From Gautieria morchelliformis (lineage: Eukaryota; Basidiomycota; Agaricomycetes; Gomphales; Gomphaceae), in NCBI GenBank assembly GCA_015179125.1, contig WHVA01000019.1, positions 372,001 through 436,000 of the forward strand: DNA of 64,000 nucleotides, in the 5' to 3' direction. The translations under genes were made by a program, and so were the position numbers. Below, in pieces: positions 55,620-62,939 of the stretch. Within the stretch, counting starts at the first letter, position 1, and every line of letters begins with the position of its first letter. Below the pieces are notes generated by a model, which saw only the letters and a program-made list of their open reading frames with translations, was not told the origin of the DNA and did no database searches.

Positions 55620-56756
55620 CCATAGGCATGTAGAGAATACTGGCCTATGCTGGTGATTCGTCGATCGCCTCAGTACATGGATAGTGTATGGATATATAGG
55701 TGTATCACGGATCAGATGCCAGATAGAGATATGTATGGGACTGCGGCGAGTCGTCGAGTGTGAGCCAGATAGTAACTTGCATCTTGCCGCCGTCAGCGTC
55801 TAAGAAGAATGTGCGCGCCGGGTATTTCTGCTCGTACATGAGCCTGCATATCCAAGATGATACGAGTTCCAGAGTTCTCTAGACATTCACCTTCTCCGCT
55901 GAGAGACGGCACTCAGCAGCAGGAACACGAAAATGTGACAAGCAGTGTTAAGAAAGAAATCAGCCATGCTGATATAAGATGGTTGGAAGGACTATGCCCG
56001 ACAGACGGTTCACTGCTGAGCTCTCATGAAGGAACATGCGCTGCATGTAGAGATCTGGCCGCCGGTCACTGCTGAGCGCGGAACTGGGAGGCTATAGTGG
56101 CATGGGTAAATAAGGACTTGATATCACCGTGAGTGTATCCCAGCGAGCAGAAACACAAGCTTAGAAGAGAGCAGTGAGTGACGACTAAGTAGCGGCCATT
56201 GAGGTAGCCACACTGCATGACCAATAACACGTGACCATCGACACCAGATTTCAGGTACAGGACCTCTCCCAGCGCCGAGCCCTGCGATACCAGATCTTTA
56301 GATCACTTCGAACCTTGATGCAGACCCGATGCATGAACCAGGATCAGGATATATATATACGTCATTGCAGGGAATATTGGGAACCTGACGGGACAACCCA
56401 CTTGCGGCTTGCCTCTGCCGCCTTGCCAGATGTGCACCGACTAGCTACATGCAAGAGATTGAAAGAGATGTTATACATGAGCATGTGTCGTCGTCGTCAA
56501 TTCGTGACATGACTGAGCTACCTGACGATCCAAGCAATAAAATAACAACAAAGCATGCACGTTGGAAAGCGAAAACTGAAACGTTGAAATTGAAGTGAAA
56601 GGTATATATCCACAAACGGAGAATGACAGTTCAGAATGTCCTATATAATAGGAAACAAACTATAAATCACAACTCGAAAATGTCCATATTGAATGATACG
56701 TGCTCGAACGAGCTCTTCAGACTGCACATCCAATCTGAAGAGGGGAATGGTCAGAG
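55620..56756. other. Intergenic between C3 and C4; no supported gene
   Basis: Scattered short ORFs only. The last exon of C3, beyond the GTAAGT at 56781-56786, may lie at its right end, but I could not place it. Confidence 0.35.
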
Positions 56757-56786
56757 TCAGATGGTGAGAACAATACTTCTACTTAC

Positions 56787-59700
56787 CGTTCCAGCTATAG
56801 AAGGGGTATAATCCTGCTCGGCTACGGAACTGCCGGCACTAAGCCTGCTTGGCTGGTTCGCCTTGGGTGACCGCTCGCCGGATGAAAAGTCTGCTCCATT
56901 TATTGAACTGCCAGCACTAAGCCTACTTGGCGTGATTGCTTTGGGTGACCGCTCGCCGGATGAAAATTCCCCTCCATTGATTGAACTGCCAGCACTAAGC
57001 CTACTTGGCACGATCGCTTTGGGCGTCAGCTCCCCACTTGCGTAACCCTCGCCATCTAACGAACTGCCTGCGCTAAGTCGGCTGGGCGCGGTGACTTGTA
57101 TTTCAAGCGGAGGGGGGGGGCCTGGCGGTATGCGCTCAGGATCAGCGAATGGGTCTGGTTCCGCAAAGAATGACTCGTTGACACGGGCCTCATCGCCGAA
57201 CGGGTTATTCAAAAAGGCGGGGACGGGGACACGTTTAATGCGAGCAGTGGAGTCAGAAGTGATACTGGCTGGCGTAGTGTCGCGATCGACCTGTGTCATG
57301 TCCTCATGACCGGGATGGTTTTCAAGATCGATTGAATGCCCGTCATGGACCCCGGTCTCGAATGATACTCCGCCATCAAGTGAGGAATTATGTGACGGCG
57401 CCGGGTGGGTACTGAGGTCAGTTGCACGCATACGCCGCTGCTTCTTTCGGCGCAAAACGGTGCACACTGTAAGTAATATCAGAACAAACAGGGTTGAGCC
57501 TACGGCGGCACCGATCGTGGCGCTTTGGTTGGAGCCACCAGTTCTGAAATCGGACAGTGAGTCAACTGCCAAATATGTCATATGAAAAGAAACGAACGAA
57601 GAGCTACGTGCAGAAGGGTTTGGCACGACGGCGGTAGTGAGCACCTGGGTGGGAACTCCCCCAATGTCAGTTGAAGTCAAAAAGGTGGCCGTGATTGACG
57701 CAGGTGGAGCCTGCGTTTCCGTTGTTGCCTGTCTGGAAGGACGTGTCAAACGAGTTTCGGGGTCGCGACCGGGGACAGAAACAAAAACAATCAATACGCC
57801 CATCGTTTCTCATCTCCCAATACAATAGAAAGCGAACACAGGATAGTGAAATAGAGACATACCCCTGTGCATTAGTTGTAACGATTGTTGAGCCCGGAAC
57901 TCCAACTGGGGCAGTGGCAACGGTGCCGCCAGCGTTGTCCCCCAGAGCTGTTGCTACATCATTGTTAGCCCCGAGGCTGCAGTTTATGGCGTTAAAGAAG
58001 CACAGCCGGGAAAGGTATGGAATATCCTTACCGGGTCAAAATAGATGAAGCCTGAGATGATTGGGAAGCCGCCGGCGACTGGGATGCAAGTGCTGTCATC
58101 CCTCCTGGCATTGCTAACACCGGTGAGGGTGGCATAGACGATGGGAAAGCCATAGGTGGCGGAGGAGGTGGAGCACTCATGAGGGCCGGAGGTTGAGAAT
58201 TATGGGATACACTAAACATATACAACGTATTGAATTACAATTTACGTGTGATGTGGTCGTTGACATACGGGGTAGTCACCCCACCTGGCGCATTTGCTGC
58301 AGGGGTTACTCCTTGGGGTTGGGAGAATGCAGGCCTGGAAGGGATATTCTTCAGAAAGCTCACGCTCAGTTATCGAATAACCTACGCATTCGATCCGCCG
58401 CTACCCTGTCCACCTTGAGCCGCACCATTAGCAACACTAGAGGGCAGCGGCGTGCCATGGTCCCCACCGTTACTGTTACCACCATCGGCGCTATGAGAGG
58501 GTTGGTTGCTCGATGGGGGGTTGCCCTGGCTCCCTCCGCCACTGTCGCCGCTAGAACTGGAAGTAGAACCCCCACCGTTGCCCCCTTTATCAGGACTGGA
58601 GAGGATGTTATTCGACAGTCTTCACGTATGAAACTGTGAGACTTACGGAGGCTGATTGCCCTTGCCACCATCGCCGCCAGAACTGGAAGTAGAACCCCCA
58701 CCGTTGCCCCCTTTATCAGGACTGGAGAGGATGTTATTCGACAGTCTTCACGTATGAAACTGTGGAGACCTACGGAGGCTGATTGCCGTTGCCACCGTCG
58801 CCGCCAGAACTGGAAGTAGAACCCCCACCGTTGCCCCCTTTATCAGGACTGGAGAGGATGTTATTCGACAGTCTTCACGTATGAAACTGTGAGACCTACG
58901 GAGGCTGATTGCCCTTGCCACCGTCGCCGCCAGAACTGGAGGTAGAACCCCCACCGTTGCCCCCTTTATCAGGACTGGAGAGGATGTTATTCGACAGTCT
59001 TCACGTATGAAACTGTGAGACCTACGGAGGTTGATTGCCGTTGCCACCGTCGCCGCCAGAACTGGAAGTAGAACCCCCACCGTTGCCCCCTTTATCAGGA
59101 CTGGAGAGGATGTTATTCGACAGTCTTCACGTATGAAACTGTGAGACCTACGGAGGCTGATTGCCCTTGCCACCGTCGCCGCCAGAACTGGAAGTAGAAC
59201 CCCCACCGTTGCCCCCTTTATCAGGACTGGAGAGGATGTTATTCGACAGTCTTCACGTATGAAACTGTGAGACTTACGGAGGCTGATTGCCACCGTCGCC
59301 GCCAGAACTGGGAGTAGAACCCCCACCGTTGCCCCCTTTATCAGGACTGGAGAGGATGTTATTCGACAGTCTTCACGTATGAAACTGTGAGACTTACGGA
59401 GGCTGATTGCCACCGTCGCCGCCAGAACTGGAAGTAGAACCCCCACCGTTGCCCCCTTTATCAGGACTGGAGAGGATGTTATTCGACAGTCTTCATGTAT
59501 GAAACTGTGAGACCTACGGAGGCTGATTGCCCTTGCCACCGTCGCCCCCAGAACTGGAAGTAGAACCCCCACCGTTGCCCCCTTTATCAGGACTGGAGAG
59601 GATGTTATTCGACAGTCTTCACGTATGAAACTGTGAGACCTACGGAGGCTGATTGCCCTTGCCACCGTCGCCGCCAGAACTGGAAGTAGAACCCCCACCG

Positions 59701-62700
59701 TTGCCCCCTTTATCAGGACTGGAGAGGATGTTATTCGACAGTCTTCACATGTGAAACTGTGGAGACCTACGGATTCTGATCGCCGTTGCCACCAAGACCA
59801 AGGCTGATACCACCGTTGCTACCACCGACCCCAACGTGTAAAGGAGGGCTTTGGCCACTACCGCCATTTTTGCCGTCATTTCCGGACCCATTGGACGCGG
59901 AACTTGAAGCTTGCGGGGGTGCTACCCCCACTGAGGCAATTCCAGGGACACTAATAGTAACCCCTTTATTGCTCCCAACACCGCCGAGAATACCACCGAG
60001 ACCTCCGCCGTTACTACTAGATGACGAATCCGAATTCTTCCCGCTATTGCCGCTGCCCTTACCGCCATTTTTCGAGCCACCATTGTTTGCTTGGTTTCCC
60101 GATCCATCACTTGAGGCTTGCGGGGGTGCTACCCCCACTGAGGCAGAAATTCCAGCGGCACCAACGGAAATTCCTTTATTGCTCCCAAGCCCCAGAGCGC
60201 CAGTGACGCCGCCAAGGAGACCCCCTCCGCCGTTATTACTACCGCTGCCACTGCTGCTAGATGACGAATCCGAATTCTTCCCGCTATTGCCGCTGCCCTT
60301 ATCGCCATGGTTCGAGCCACCATTGTTGGCTTGGTTTCCCGACCCATCACTTGAAGCTTGCGGGGGTGCTGCCCCCACTGAGGCAGAAATTCCAGCGGCA
60401 CCAACGGAAATTCCTTTATTGCTCCCAAGCCCCAGAGCGCCAGTGACGCCGCCAAGGAGACCACCTCCGCCGTTATTACTACCGCTGCCACTGCTGCTAG
60501 ATGGCGAATCCGAATTCTTCCCGCTATTGCCGCTGCCCTTACCGCCATTGTTCGAGCCACCATTGTTTGCTTGGTTTCCCGATCCATCACTTGAAGCCTG
60601 CGGTGGTGCTGCCCCCACTGAGGCGGAAATTCCAGCGGCACCAACGGAAATTCCTTTATTGCTCCCAAGCCCCAGAGCGCCAGTGACGCCGCCAAGGAGA
60701 CCACCTCCGCCGTTATTACTACCGCTGTCACTGCTGCTAGATGACGAATCCGAATTCTTCCCGCTATTGCCGCTGCCCTTACCGCCATTGTTCGAGCCAC
60801 CATTGTTTGCTTGGTTTCCCGTTCCATCACTTGAGGCTTGCGGGGGTGCTGCCCCCACTGAGGCAGAAGTTCCAGCGGCACTAATAGTAGCTCCTTTATT
60901 GCTCCCAAGCCCCAGAGCGCTACCGATGCCGCCAAGGAGACCACCTCCACCGTGCTTATTGCTGCCGCTGTTGCTGCTGTCCGACGAACTCGGGGGAGCA
61001 AGCACCTGCGTGCTTTGAGACGGTGGGCTGGTGTTGGAACCAGATCCTTTTCCGCTTCCTTTCACCTTGGAAGGTGCGGGGGCAGAGGCCGTCGCCGTGG
61101 CGCTTCCAGATGCGCCGCCGCCAAGTTGAAGGCCGATGCTGACCGGGCCTGCGCCCAAACCTAGACCATTAAGCAGACCACTGCCACTACCTCCCTGGCT
61201 GGGGTTTCCGTTGCCCCCAGGCTGGTGGGATTTTCCTGGATTATTGCTTACTGAAGCCGAGGCCGCACTGGATGTAAGTGCTGTTGTGCCGGTGGCGCTT
61301 GAAGACACACCTGCAGCACTGGACGTCGATTGAGATGCGAGGCCAAGTTTCTTGCCGCCTGCTGCCCCGTTCGAGCCCAGAATTCCACCAACCGCACCGA
61401 GTAAACCCCCGTTACCCGCCTGGCTGGTGCTGCCTTTGTTCCCGTTCTGGGAGGATGTGTTGGGACTATTGCTTGCTGATGCCGAGGCGGTGCTGGGTGC
61501 TGGGGTAGATGATGCGGCGCTCGAGGTTGATTGGGGTAGAAGGCCATCAACACCATTGAGCAGGCCACTTGCCGCTCCGTTTCCGCCCAGAAGTCCACCA
61601 GACTTACCTCTGTTACCGCCCTGGTTCGAGAGGCTGGAACTGGCAGTTGATGACGCGGAGGCCGAGCTGGATGCTGGCGTTGCGATAGTGACGGCACTCG
61701 AGGAAGCCGTGGTGACCCTGGATGTTGAGGGAGACGTGGCGAGGGTGCCAGATGAAGCAGATGCAGAATTGGATCCTGATATAGGTGCTGTGTTTTTAAG
61801 ACTTCCTCTTTGGGGGACTGAGGCGGCGCCGTTCGAACCCTGATGCGTGGGAGACGGAAAAATACCGGATACTACCGAAGTAATGGAAGAGCCGGTCTCA
61901 GTCGAGGACTGCAAAGTCGACGCTCCACCTTTCCTCCCAGTCTTGGAACTGGAGAGGGGGCTCGACGTAGGAGGCACCGAAGCTTTCGAGGGAGTGCTCG
62001 AAGAGATCGCAGTGCCAGAAGGAGACGCTGAAGTAATTAAAGATGGAGTAGCCGAGCTGGAACTGCGGCCACCAGAGGCAGATTTGTGTGAGGCAGACAA
62101 ACGCGCAAATGACAACGCTGCGGACACAGTGGAGGATGCAGAAGGGGCAGGAATATTATTAGTAGCCGACGGTGACGAGTTGCCCACGCTACCCGACGGG
62201 GTACTGCTCTTGGCGCCTCTGCCACCAGCTGAGGTGGACGACGCCAAACCGGACGACAAAGATGCGCTCGCCGGTTTCGAGGCGCCGATGGATGATGCAG
62301 CAGCCACCGCCGAGGATGGCTGGTTGCTGCTACTTCCGGGCGCAGGCACACCTTTACCGCTATGTTCCGAAGGCGTCGGAGAGGGAGTGGCCTGCGGAGA
62401 CGGAGATGCAGAAAACGCAGAAGACGATTTGATCGGTGCACTCGAGGATAGACCATTACCGGGGACGGTAGCGCCTGTCCCAGCCGGGCCGATGTTATGG
62501 CTATTAGGCGTAAGCGAACGAGACGGAGAACTACTGGAGGGTAAAGGAGAGGAAGCTGGAGTCGCAGACCCTTGAGAATGTGGAGATTGAGACGACTGTG
62601 CAGGACGTTGCTGCGACGACGACCCAGCGTTCGCTGGTGAAGAGGGTACGGCCTTTGTTGCTGGTGTACTTGCAGGTACTGAGGCTTTTGAGCTGGCCGG

Positions 62701-62939
62701 CGGCTGAGAGCCGCCAGCGGGTGCTTGCTTGGAGCCAGTACCACCCTGAGAGGCTGTAGGTGTGGGAGCTGTAAACATGAATGAGAAGGGGATGCATGGA
62801 CGACTCTCATGGAATACAGCAGCAACTGCGACCACTGGAGCTATCGAATTCACTCACGTGTGTTCTTAGACCCTGGTGTTGACTGGCCTCCAGCGGGCGA
62901 ACTGGCTAGTGATCCACCCTGCGCAGGCACCGGTGCCAT
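56787..62939 (-). CDS. Mucin-like single-TM protein, long copy C3 with mini-exon array
   Basis: A phase-consistent model covers 16 exons: 62939-62858, 62768-59771, nine mini-exons (59718-58647), 58595-58386, 58334-58269, 58211-58032, 57976-57863 and 57732-56787, then GTAAGT into an unplaced last exon. The sum is 5259 nt, about 1750 codons. Exon 2 encodes ~1000 Ser/Gly/Ala/Pro residues; its 3' third has four 240 bp repeats (GGGLLGGVTGALGLGSNKG). Mini-exons add PPDKGGNGGGSTSSSGGDGG modules. The tail exon has the membrane span ATIGAAVGSTLFVLILLTVC, RRKKQRR, and four PSRLSAGSS repeats. A 42 nt GTAGCT...CAG just before the TM could be another intron. No signal peptide is evident. Its role as a cell-surface glycoprotein or wall sensor is inferred from layout only. 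Confidence 0.75.
56816..57100 (-). repeat. Cytoplasmic tail repeats in C3 (~25 residues x 4)
   Basis: The minus strand encodes four tandem units of the form PSRLSAGSS(I/L)(N/D)G...SGE(R/L)(S/T)PKA, spaced 75-78 bp. C1 and C2 have a single diverged unit (APSRLSITSQS) and a PPPPY motif instead. Confidence 0.85.
58596..59770 (-). repeat. Tandem intron/mini-exon array in C3
   Basis: Ten near-identical GT-AG introns of 51-52 nt (minus strand GTAGGTCTCACAGTTTCATA ... CATCCTCTCCAG, some GTAAGT) alternate with nine mini-exons: 59644-59718, 59518-59592, 59398-59466, 59278-59346, 59152-59226, 59026-59100, 58900-58974, 58774-58848 and 58647-58721. Seven are 75 nt and two 69 nt. Every one begins with one base completing a Pro codon and ends CC, so all are symmetric phase 2-2. 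A long open frame read straight through the array exists only because the repeat is 126 nt and is not the coding frame. Confidence 0.85.
59890..60960 (-). repeat. 240 bp in-frame repeats in exon 2 of C3
   Basis: Four to five copies with exact 240 bp period (for example 60121, 60361, 60601, 60841), encoding ~80-residue Ser/Gly/Asn modules with a short hydrophobic core GGLLGGVTGALGLGSNKGIS. Divergence is only a few percent, so expansion is recent. Confidence 0.9.

What the first reader, a model, noticed from the sequence alone, without database searches (positions are those of the whole stretch)
58596..59770. Array of nine near-identical mini-exons, each with its own near-identical intron
The array alternates 51-52 nt GT-AG introns with 69/75 nt exons, all phase 2-2, and the flanking exons (62768-59771 and 58595-58386) have matching phase. 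Duplication of the intron-exon module as a unit has built a repetitive extracellular domain. Any mini-exon can be skipped or included without frame change, so one gene could yield many repeat-length variants by splicing, or by unequal crossing-over. C1 and C2 lack it, so the expansion is specific to C3. Coding repeats usually expand within one exon; expansion through spliceosomal intron modules in a fungal surface-type gene is unusual.
Basis: partly seen in the sequence, partly recalled or inferred. Interest (0 to 1): 0.9.

Follow-up and report, generated by a model that had tools for sequence, protein, structure and literature searches.

The report
Intron-carrying repeat array in truffle gene
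In one gene of a truffle-like mushroom, a short DNA unit holding one intron and one small exon appears to have been copied about nine times in a row, a neat but not unprecedented way for a repetitive protein to grow and gain introns.

Summary
On the minus strand, 59770-58596 holds ten GT-AG introns (eight of 51 nt, two of 52) alternating with nine mini-exons (seven of 75 nt, two of 69). All are phase 2 and in frame with both flanking exons. My gene model (C3, 1,740 residues) ends exactly in the public protein P0004, which covers only its last 390 residues. The array was found once in the 122 Mb Gautieria morchelliformis assembly. Five other family loci lack it; four have one intron at that place. 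Introns and exons differ equally between copies (1.4-2.1% and 1.9%), so the unit was copied as a whole. A mini-exon reads as the next exon's head fused to exon 2's tail: a first duplication spanned one ancestral intron, and the unit then multiplied like a minisatellite. Splicing of the array is inferred, not shown. The kind is known: Cryptococcus CNN00420 (EST-supported, polymorphic) and spider MaSp2 genes. Verdict: a new, clean and rather long member of a known kind, and a good test locus. It is not a new mechanism.

The parts
62858..62939 (-). C3 exon 1 (82 nt, predicted start codon at 62939); same length and phase as exon 1 in C2, L021, L022 and L023 (81 nt in C1)
   Evidence: 54 of 82 identical to the L022 exon 1
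62769..62857 (-). C3 intron 1 (89 nt, phase 1)
59771..62768 (-). C3 exon 2 (2998 nt, open, Ser/Gly/Ala-rich), ends in phase 2
60017..60953 (-). Intron-free 240-bp coding repeat, 3.9 copies, inside exon 2
58596..59770 (-). The array: ten introns (59770-59719, 59643-59593, 59517-59467, 59397-59347, 59277-59227, 59151-59101, 59025-58975, 58899-58849, 58773-58722, 58646-58596) and the nine mini-exons between them
   Evidence: unit 126 bp
59644..59718 (-). Mini-exon 1 (75 nt; PPDKGGNGGGSTSSSGGDGGKGNQP)
58647..58721 (-). Mini-exon 9 (75 nt), last of the array
58386..58595 (-). Exon after the array (210 nt); its first 58 nt match the heads of the nine mini-exons at 95-97%
58335..58385 (-). Intron after that exon (51 nt); possibly an older relative of the array introns
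   Evidence: p 0.0115 against the array intron and 0.002 against the C1 intron by shuffling, but two unexpected pairs among the 15 compared scored p 0.017 and 0.032
56717..58334 (-). Remaining C3 exons and introns: four introns in phase 2 and a last one (56786-56735) in phase 0; hydrophobic helix, basic stretch, tail with a 78-bp repeat (56827-57077), stop at 56717
   Evidence: the public model P0004 is an exact suffix of this model, from residue 1351

Best explanation
This is a minisatellite whose repeat unit contains a whole spliceosomal intron. Shown: in four paralog loci a single phase-2 intron lies at this place; in C3 there are ten near-identical ones separated by nine near-identical in-frame exons; introns and exons differ about equally between copies; a mini-exon reads best as the head of the following exon fused to the tail of exon 2. 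Inferred: a first head-to-tail duplication, with ends at the short shared motif GTGGC in the Gly-coding sequence on either side of the one intron, made the first mini-exon. [quoted passage not shown] Because the splice sites came along and the unit is frame-neutral, each intron is removed and each mini-exon translated, giving one protein of about 1,740 residues with nine extra 23-25-residue Gly/Ser/Asn/Pro-rich repeats. Copy number should vary between strains by DNA change, not by splicing.
For: Ten intact GT-AG introns, nine exons all 0 mod 3, and a spliced frame from 62939 to a stop at 56717 whose last 390 residues are exactly the public protein P0004. Four of the five family loci without the array (C1, L021, L022, L023) have one GTAAGTCTCC..CAAG intron there (phase 2 in L021, L022 and L023; in C1 the one-base difference in exon 1 shifts my count), and two public models (P0002, P0005) splice it. 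Equal intron and exon divergence. The one indel among exons is 6 nt, the one among introns 1 nt, as expected if exons are read and introns removed. Of 2976 windows of exon 2, the one ending at the donor matches the mini-exon tail best: 19 of 23, next best 15 (mini-exon 5). Intron 1, at the array edge, carries both substitutions that no other copy has at positions 20 and 22, the edge effect expected of unequal exchange (recalled). The array sequence was found nowhere else in the assembly. The same gene has two intron-free tandem repeats.
Against: No RNA evidence was available. P0004 begins downstream of the array, and two searches of the protein collection with C3 parts, each limited to a length range and to about 7,986 scored candidates of low-complexity sequence, found no annotated protein covering exon 2 or the array. 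Public models P0001 (C2) and P0003 (C1) read across part of the homologous intron unspliced. My models of C1, L021, L022 and L023 did not stay open to the tail (16, 313, 230 and 230 residues); some of my downstream splice choices differ from the public models, but C1 and L021 also carry real differences (81-nt exon 1; a changed donor). Purifying selection is not demonstrated: C2 against C3 gave 3 synonymous and 10 nonsynonymous differences (dS 0.018, dN 0.023); 4 of 6 variable mini-exon sites are synonymous (P = 0.063, copies not independent). The branch-site candidate ATAAC is not the usual CTRAY form (recalled).
Confidence: 0.77

Rival explanations
1. The array is DNA-level only: a minisatellite in a decaying or untranscribed 5' part of the gene. 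The working protein begins downstream, as in the public model P0004.
For: P0004 starts in the exon at 58211-58032. No clear purifying selection between C2 and C3. Signs of decay in the family: the window's C1 copy has an 81-nt exon 1 where the others have 82, and L021 lacks the GTATGT donor that C1 has. Seven of the eight window reading frames scanned matched retroelement-type families.
Against: Exon 1, its start codon, length and phase match C2, L021, L022 and L023. Exon 2 is open for 2998 nt. All nine mini-exons keep frame, all twenty splice sites are intact, and the frame runs exactly into P0004. P0002 and P0005 include the N-terminal exons and the homologous intron. Automatic annotation often loses masked tandem repeats (recalled).
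Confidence: 0.15
2. A splicing-based length switch: mini-exons are skipped or included in different numbers, so one gene makes many surface-protein lengths.
For: Every combination of the nine exons stays in frame. An AG 39 nt into each mini-exon (9 of 9) after a pyrimidine-rich stretch would also keep frame. Exon skipping exists in basidiomycetes: 12 of 193 events in U. maydis and, per the same passages, numerous cases in C. neoformans.
Against: Introns of 51-52 nt with near-identical donors and acceptors favour local intron-defined splicing (inference). The frame arithmetic follows automatically from duplicating one phase-2 unit and is no sign of selection for skipping.
Confidence: 0.06
3. 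The introns are copies of a mobile introner-like element that inserted repeatedly.
For: Near-identical introns are a hallmark of introners (recalled; PMC9860276, abstract start in the listing only).
Against: The intron sequence was found nowhere else in the assembly (the tool scores only its best candidates). The exons between the introns are near-identical too, which insertion does not explain. No significant fold (z -0.3 to -1.5).
Confidence: 0.01
4. The copy number is an assembly artefact, too many or too few units; the real array differs but is of the same kind.
For: Ten 126-bp units at 96% matches are hard for short reads. The platform of this assembly was not established (PMC7550596, which names the species, says Illumina, PacBio or both; passages).
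Against: Copies carry private variants and two unit lengths in a definite order, which artefactual repetition does not easily give.
Confidence: 0.1

Closest known systems
Cryptococcus neoformans CNN00420 intron-containing repeats (Sharpton et al. 2008, PMC2395259; passages and section 10 seen)
   Same: A basidiomycete gene with tandem repeats (about 107 nt) holding a full intron plus exon ends. Introns 3-5 are identical, and intron 2 differs from them by one point mutation. Short exonic repeats lie in the same gene. [quoted passage not shown]
   Different: There splicing is EST-supported and copy number differs among strains. Here neither is shown, but the array is longer (ten introns against six in that whole gene). 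No sequence relation was tested.
Argiope MaSp2 and flagelliform spider silk genes (PMC9779670; passages seen)
   Same: Nearly identical small introns between similarly sized exons that encode a repetitive Gly-rich protein; introns average 97.6% pairwise similarity within a gene.
   Different: Animal genes; some have alternating intron types. Expression was analysed there; not here.
Intron gain by tandem genomic duplication in potato RdRp (PMC4974935; listing and abstract start only)
   Same: Intron gain ascribed to tandem duplication of gene sequence.
   Different: From the listing, a tandem duplication in one gene, not a repeat array; details not read.
SP7-like repeat effectors of Rhizophagus irregularis (PMC11333574; passages seen)
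   Same: Fungal proteins with 6-11 imperfect hydrophilic repeats; a conserved intron precedes the first repeat.
   Different: In the passages seen the conserved intron is before the repeats, with no intron per repeat reported. They have a signal peptide and act in plant nuclei.
Introners (PMC9860276; listing and abstract start only)
   Same: Near-identical introns (recalled).
   Different: [quoted passage not shown] here the intron was found only in one array.

Membership tests
Intron-containing tandem repeat expansion (CNN00420 type) | Tandem unit contains one complete GT-AG intron plus flanking exon sequence | tested here: met
   10 of 10 introns and 9 of 9 exons
Intron-containing tandem repeat expansion (CNN00420 type) | Introns near-identical, diverging no more than the exons | tested here: met
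   1.4-2.1% against 1.9%
Intron-containing tandem repeat expansion (CNN00420 type) | Relatives have fewer copies at the same place | tested here: met
   C1, L021, L022, L023 one intron; C2 one 55-nt intron in my model, then a short exon. These are paralogs or alleles, not other strains
Intron-containing tandem repeat expansion (CNN00420 type) | Introns are spliced (EST or RNA support) | not testable with these tools
   No RNA data held
Intron-containing tandem repeat expansion (CNN00420 type) | Copy number polymorphic between strains | not testable with these tools
   One assembly only; no second copy of the array or the upstream flank found, and only a weak 103-base hit to exon 2
Introner (mobile intron family) | Copies of the intron in many unrelated genes | tested here: not met
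   10 hits, all in the array, in each of two searches of the own assembly (best candidates only)
Fungal cell-surface protein | One membrane helix with basic flank, Ser/Gly-rich ectodomain | tested here: inconclusive
   Seen by eye in the translation; no predictor run. Pfam gave only three sub-threshold models, best PF21314 at 23.4 bits, cutoff 27.1
Fungal cell-surface protein | N-terminal signal peptide | tested here: inconclusive
   None evident by eye at MAPVPAQGGS; no predictor available

The most novel reading that the evidence does not exclude
The array works as a tunable ruler of a surface protein: intron-sized spacers keep the unit long and homogeneous enough for frequent unequal exchange while being invisible in the protein. 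Repeat length then changes quickly between nuclei or strains, perhaps with some mini-exon skipping on top. The intron would be kept because it stabilises and homogenises the coding repeat, as its authors propose for Argiope silk.
Probability: 0.12. Interest if true: 0.7.

Novelty: new member of a known kind. Interest (0 to 1): 0.38.

Why it matters
It is a clear candidate for introns being gained by DNA repeat expansion inside a coding region, with paralogs that keep the single-intron state and a readable first breakpoint. If strains differ in copy number, rates of intron gain and loss by this route could be measured directly, and so could whether ten near-identical adjacent introns are spliced in register.

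Tried and rejected
Introner hypothesis: 88-nt and 71-nt array queries hit only the array, ten places each. Intron hairpin: folds of three array introns and the following intron gave z -0.3 to -1.5, not notable. Unspliced reading: one frame of the array is open for 340 codons, but it is not the frame of exon 2; rejected. Older duplication: similarity of the following intron to the array intron (p 0.0115) is no better than that of two pairs I expected to be unrelated (p 0.017 and 0.032); left open. Search for a second copy: exon 2 had one weak 103-base hit elsewhere; the upstream flank gave only itself; the 3' flank matched 11 other places. Relatives in other species: five public proteins, all G. 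morchelliformis, among 7992 scored candidates, and no confirmed locus in the bacterial and archaeal genome collection. SP7-like design considered, not supported. Literature listings that showed no closer fungal case than CNN00420; a search for six array-type phrases found 0 papers holding two of them. This library holds open-licence papers only.
Full report
Source. Five public proteins related to the family come from Gautieria morchelliformis, on contigs of 490275, 30998 and 165858 bases. The last two equal the lengths of C927 and C267, and P0004 is an exact part of the window's gene. The species is in Agaricomycetes, Gomphales. Eight of the 31 reading frames of 200 residues or more were scanned with Pfam; seven matched retroelement-type families.

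Observation. The minus strand from 59770 to 58596 consists of ten introns and nine mini-exons exactly as described. Introns: eight of 51 nt, two of 52. Exons: seven of 75, two of 69. Tandem Repeats Finder: unit 126, 10.0 copies, 96% matches, 58538-59793. Spliced, the gene reads from a start codon at 62939 through exon 1 (82 nt), exon 2 (2998 nt), the nine mini-exons, a 210-nt exon and six further exons to a stop at 56717: 1,740 residues. The public protein P0004 is an exact suffix of this model from residue 1351, so the splicing of that tail agrees with the public model. A first version without the last intron had 1,744 residues. From the array on, all introns are phase 2 except the last, which is phase 0.

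Unspliced alternative. If any array intron is kept, the frame of exon 2 meets TAG or TAA at once (10 of 10). One other frame of the unspliced array is open for 340 codons, but it is not the frame of exon 2. I take it as chance made visible by a unit of 42 or 40 codons.

Family. A search of the own assembly with the conserved tail gave 12 exon matches (a lower bound), in six loci: C1, C2 and C3 in the window, C267 (L021), C927 (L022) and C638 (L023). L021 is 98.6% like C1 over 2492 bases and L022 is 96% like L023 over 4039. These may be alleles of a two-nucleus assembly (inference). The other five loci lack the array. C1, L021, L022 and L023 have a single 50-nt intron GTAAGTCTCC..CAAG at the corresponding place. 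C2 has a 55-nt intron in my model, then a 51-nt exon and a copy of C3's next intron. Only C2 (609 residues) of these five models stayed open to the tail. The others broke off at 16, 313, 230 and 230 residues (C1, L021, L022, L023), partly because I chose splice sites downstream that the public models do not use, partly through real differences: an 81-nt exon 1 in C1 and a changed donor in L021. C2 and C3 share 1037 bases at 96.6% from about 53305 on, so C2 looks like a C1-type front joined to a C3-type back (inference).

How the unit arose. In mini-exon 5 the first 51 nt are 50/51 like the head of the exon after the array, and the last 23 nt are 19/23 like the end of exon 2 right up to the donor. 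That window is the best of 2976 in exon 2; the next best has 15. A fusion at position 52 gives 70 of 75 matches, against 62 from the later exon alone and 38 from exon 2's tail alone; fusion points from 51 to 58 give 69-70. The fusion lies at GGTGGC in exon 2 and AGTGGC in the later exon. This is what a head-to-tail duplication across one intron leaves behind. The intron after the 210-nt exon resembles the array intron (score 41 against 28.1 +/- 5.1 for shuffles, p 0.0115) and the C1 intron (p 0.002), but among the 15 pairs compared two unexpected ones reached p 0.017 and 0.032. An older duplication before the burst is therefore only a possibility.

How the array grew. Substitution differences between copies are about equal in introns (2.1%, or 1.4% without the first) and exons (1.9%). 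The whole unit was therefore copied and homogenised. The first intron, at the edge, has two private substitutions. The 6-nt exon deletion sits in the two neighbouring units 3 and 4, each followed by a GTAAGT intron, as expected from local duplication.

Coding evidence, told both ways. For: nine of nine exons are in frame; the exon indel is 6 nt and the intron indel 1 nt; the frame runs exactly into P0004; 4 of 6 variable exon sites are synonymous (expected fraction 0.29 with an assumed transition bias of 3, P = 0.063, not independent). Two of five public models (P0002, P0005) splice the homologous intron as I do. Against: P0004 starts downstream of the array; P0001 and P0003 read across part of the homologous intron. 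Two searches of the protein database with C3 parts, each limited in length range and candidates, found no annotated protein covering exon 2 or the array. C2 against C3, over four exons and 108 nt of the next, gives 3 synonymous and 10 nonsynonymous differences, hence no sign of purifying selection. Coding divergence (13/605) is not significantly lower than intron divergence (15/347), Fisher p = 0.072. Among three of the 240-bp repeats of exon 2, synonymous to nonsynonymous counts are 6:13, 5:14 and 5:3.

Function. The tail has one hydrophobic helix followed by RRKKQRR; the long part before it is Ser/Gly/Pro-rich. Pfam gave no match above its curated cutoff. A surface role is plausible, but no signal peptide is evident by eye, so 'extracellular' stays an inference. 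I expect the mini-exons to lengthen a disordered stalk by 23-25 residues each.

Exon skipping. All combinations stay in frame, but this follows automatically from duplicating a phase-2 unit. In U. maydis 12 of 193 tabulated events were exon skipping and 114 intron retention, and fungi are thought to use intron definition; the same paper notes numerous exon-skipping cases in C. neoformans (passages of PMC2219887). I rate skipping as a regulated system at about 0.06.

Known cases. Cryptococcus CNN00420 has tandem repeats of about 107 nt with a full intron. Introns 3-5 are identical, splicing is EST-supported and copy number differs among resequenced strains (PMC2395259). Argiope MaSp2 genes have nearly identical small introns between similar exons, 97.6% similar on average, and the authors cite homogenised introns in flagelliform silk (PMC9779670, passages). 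The present array is the same kind of thing, with more introns than the whole Cryptococcus gene. Hence 'new member of a known kind'.

Noticed in passing
window 60017-60953 and 56827-57077: The same gene has two more tandem repeats without introns: 240 bp x 3.9 in exon 2 and 78 bp x about 3 in the tail.
   Followed up: partly
window about 53344-53188: Paralog C2 looks like a C1-type front joined to a C3-type back; in my model its intron uses an acceptor lying in what is exon in C3. The public model P0001 instead reads across the donor unspliced.
   Followed up: partly
L021:2563-4123 (against C1, window about 20364): The C1-like copy on C267 has an insertion of about 1.56 kb roughly 200 bp upstream of the start codon, with inverted ends (AGGGCCTATCACAGTAG and CTACTGTGATAAGCCCT), probably a DNA transposon; C1 lacks it.
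   Followed up: no
window about 20167-20087: C1 exon 1 is 81 nt where the four other paralog loci and C3 have 82: a one-base difference in a G run that breaks the frame in C1, perhaps a sequencing error.
   Followed up: no
L021 near 5680: L021 reads CTATGCGT where C1 has the donor GTATGTCT; the public model P0005 reads on into that intron and stops.
   Followed up: no
window 58596-59770: One unspliced frame of the array stays open for 340 codons; probably chance.
   Followed up: partly
window 58212-62939: Most of this gene, including exons 1 and 2 and the array, appears to be missing from the public annotation; P0004 covers only the last 390 of 1,740 residues.
   Followed up: partly
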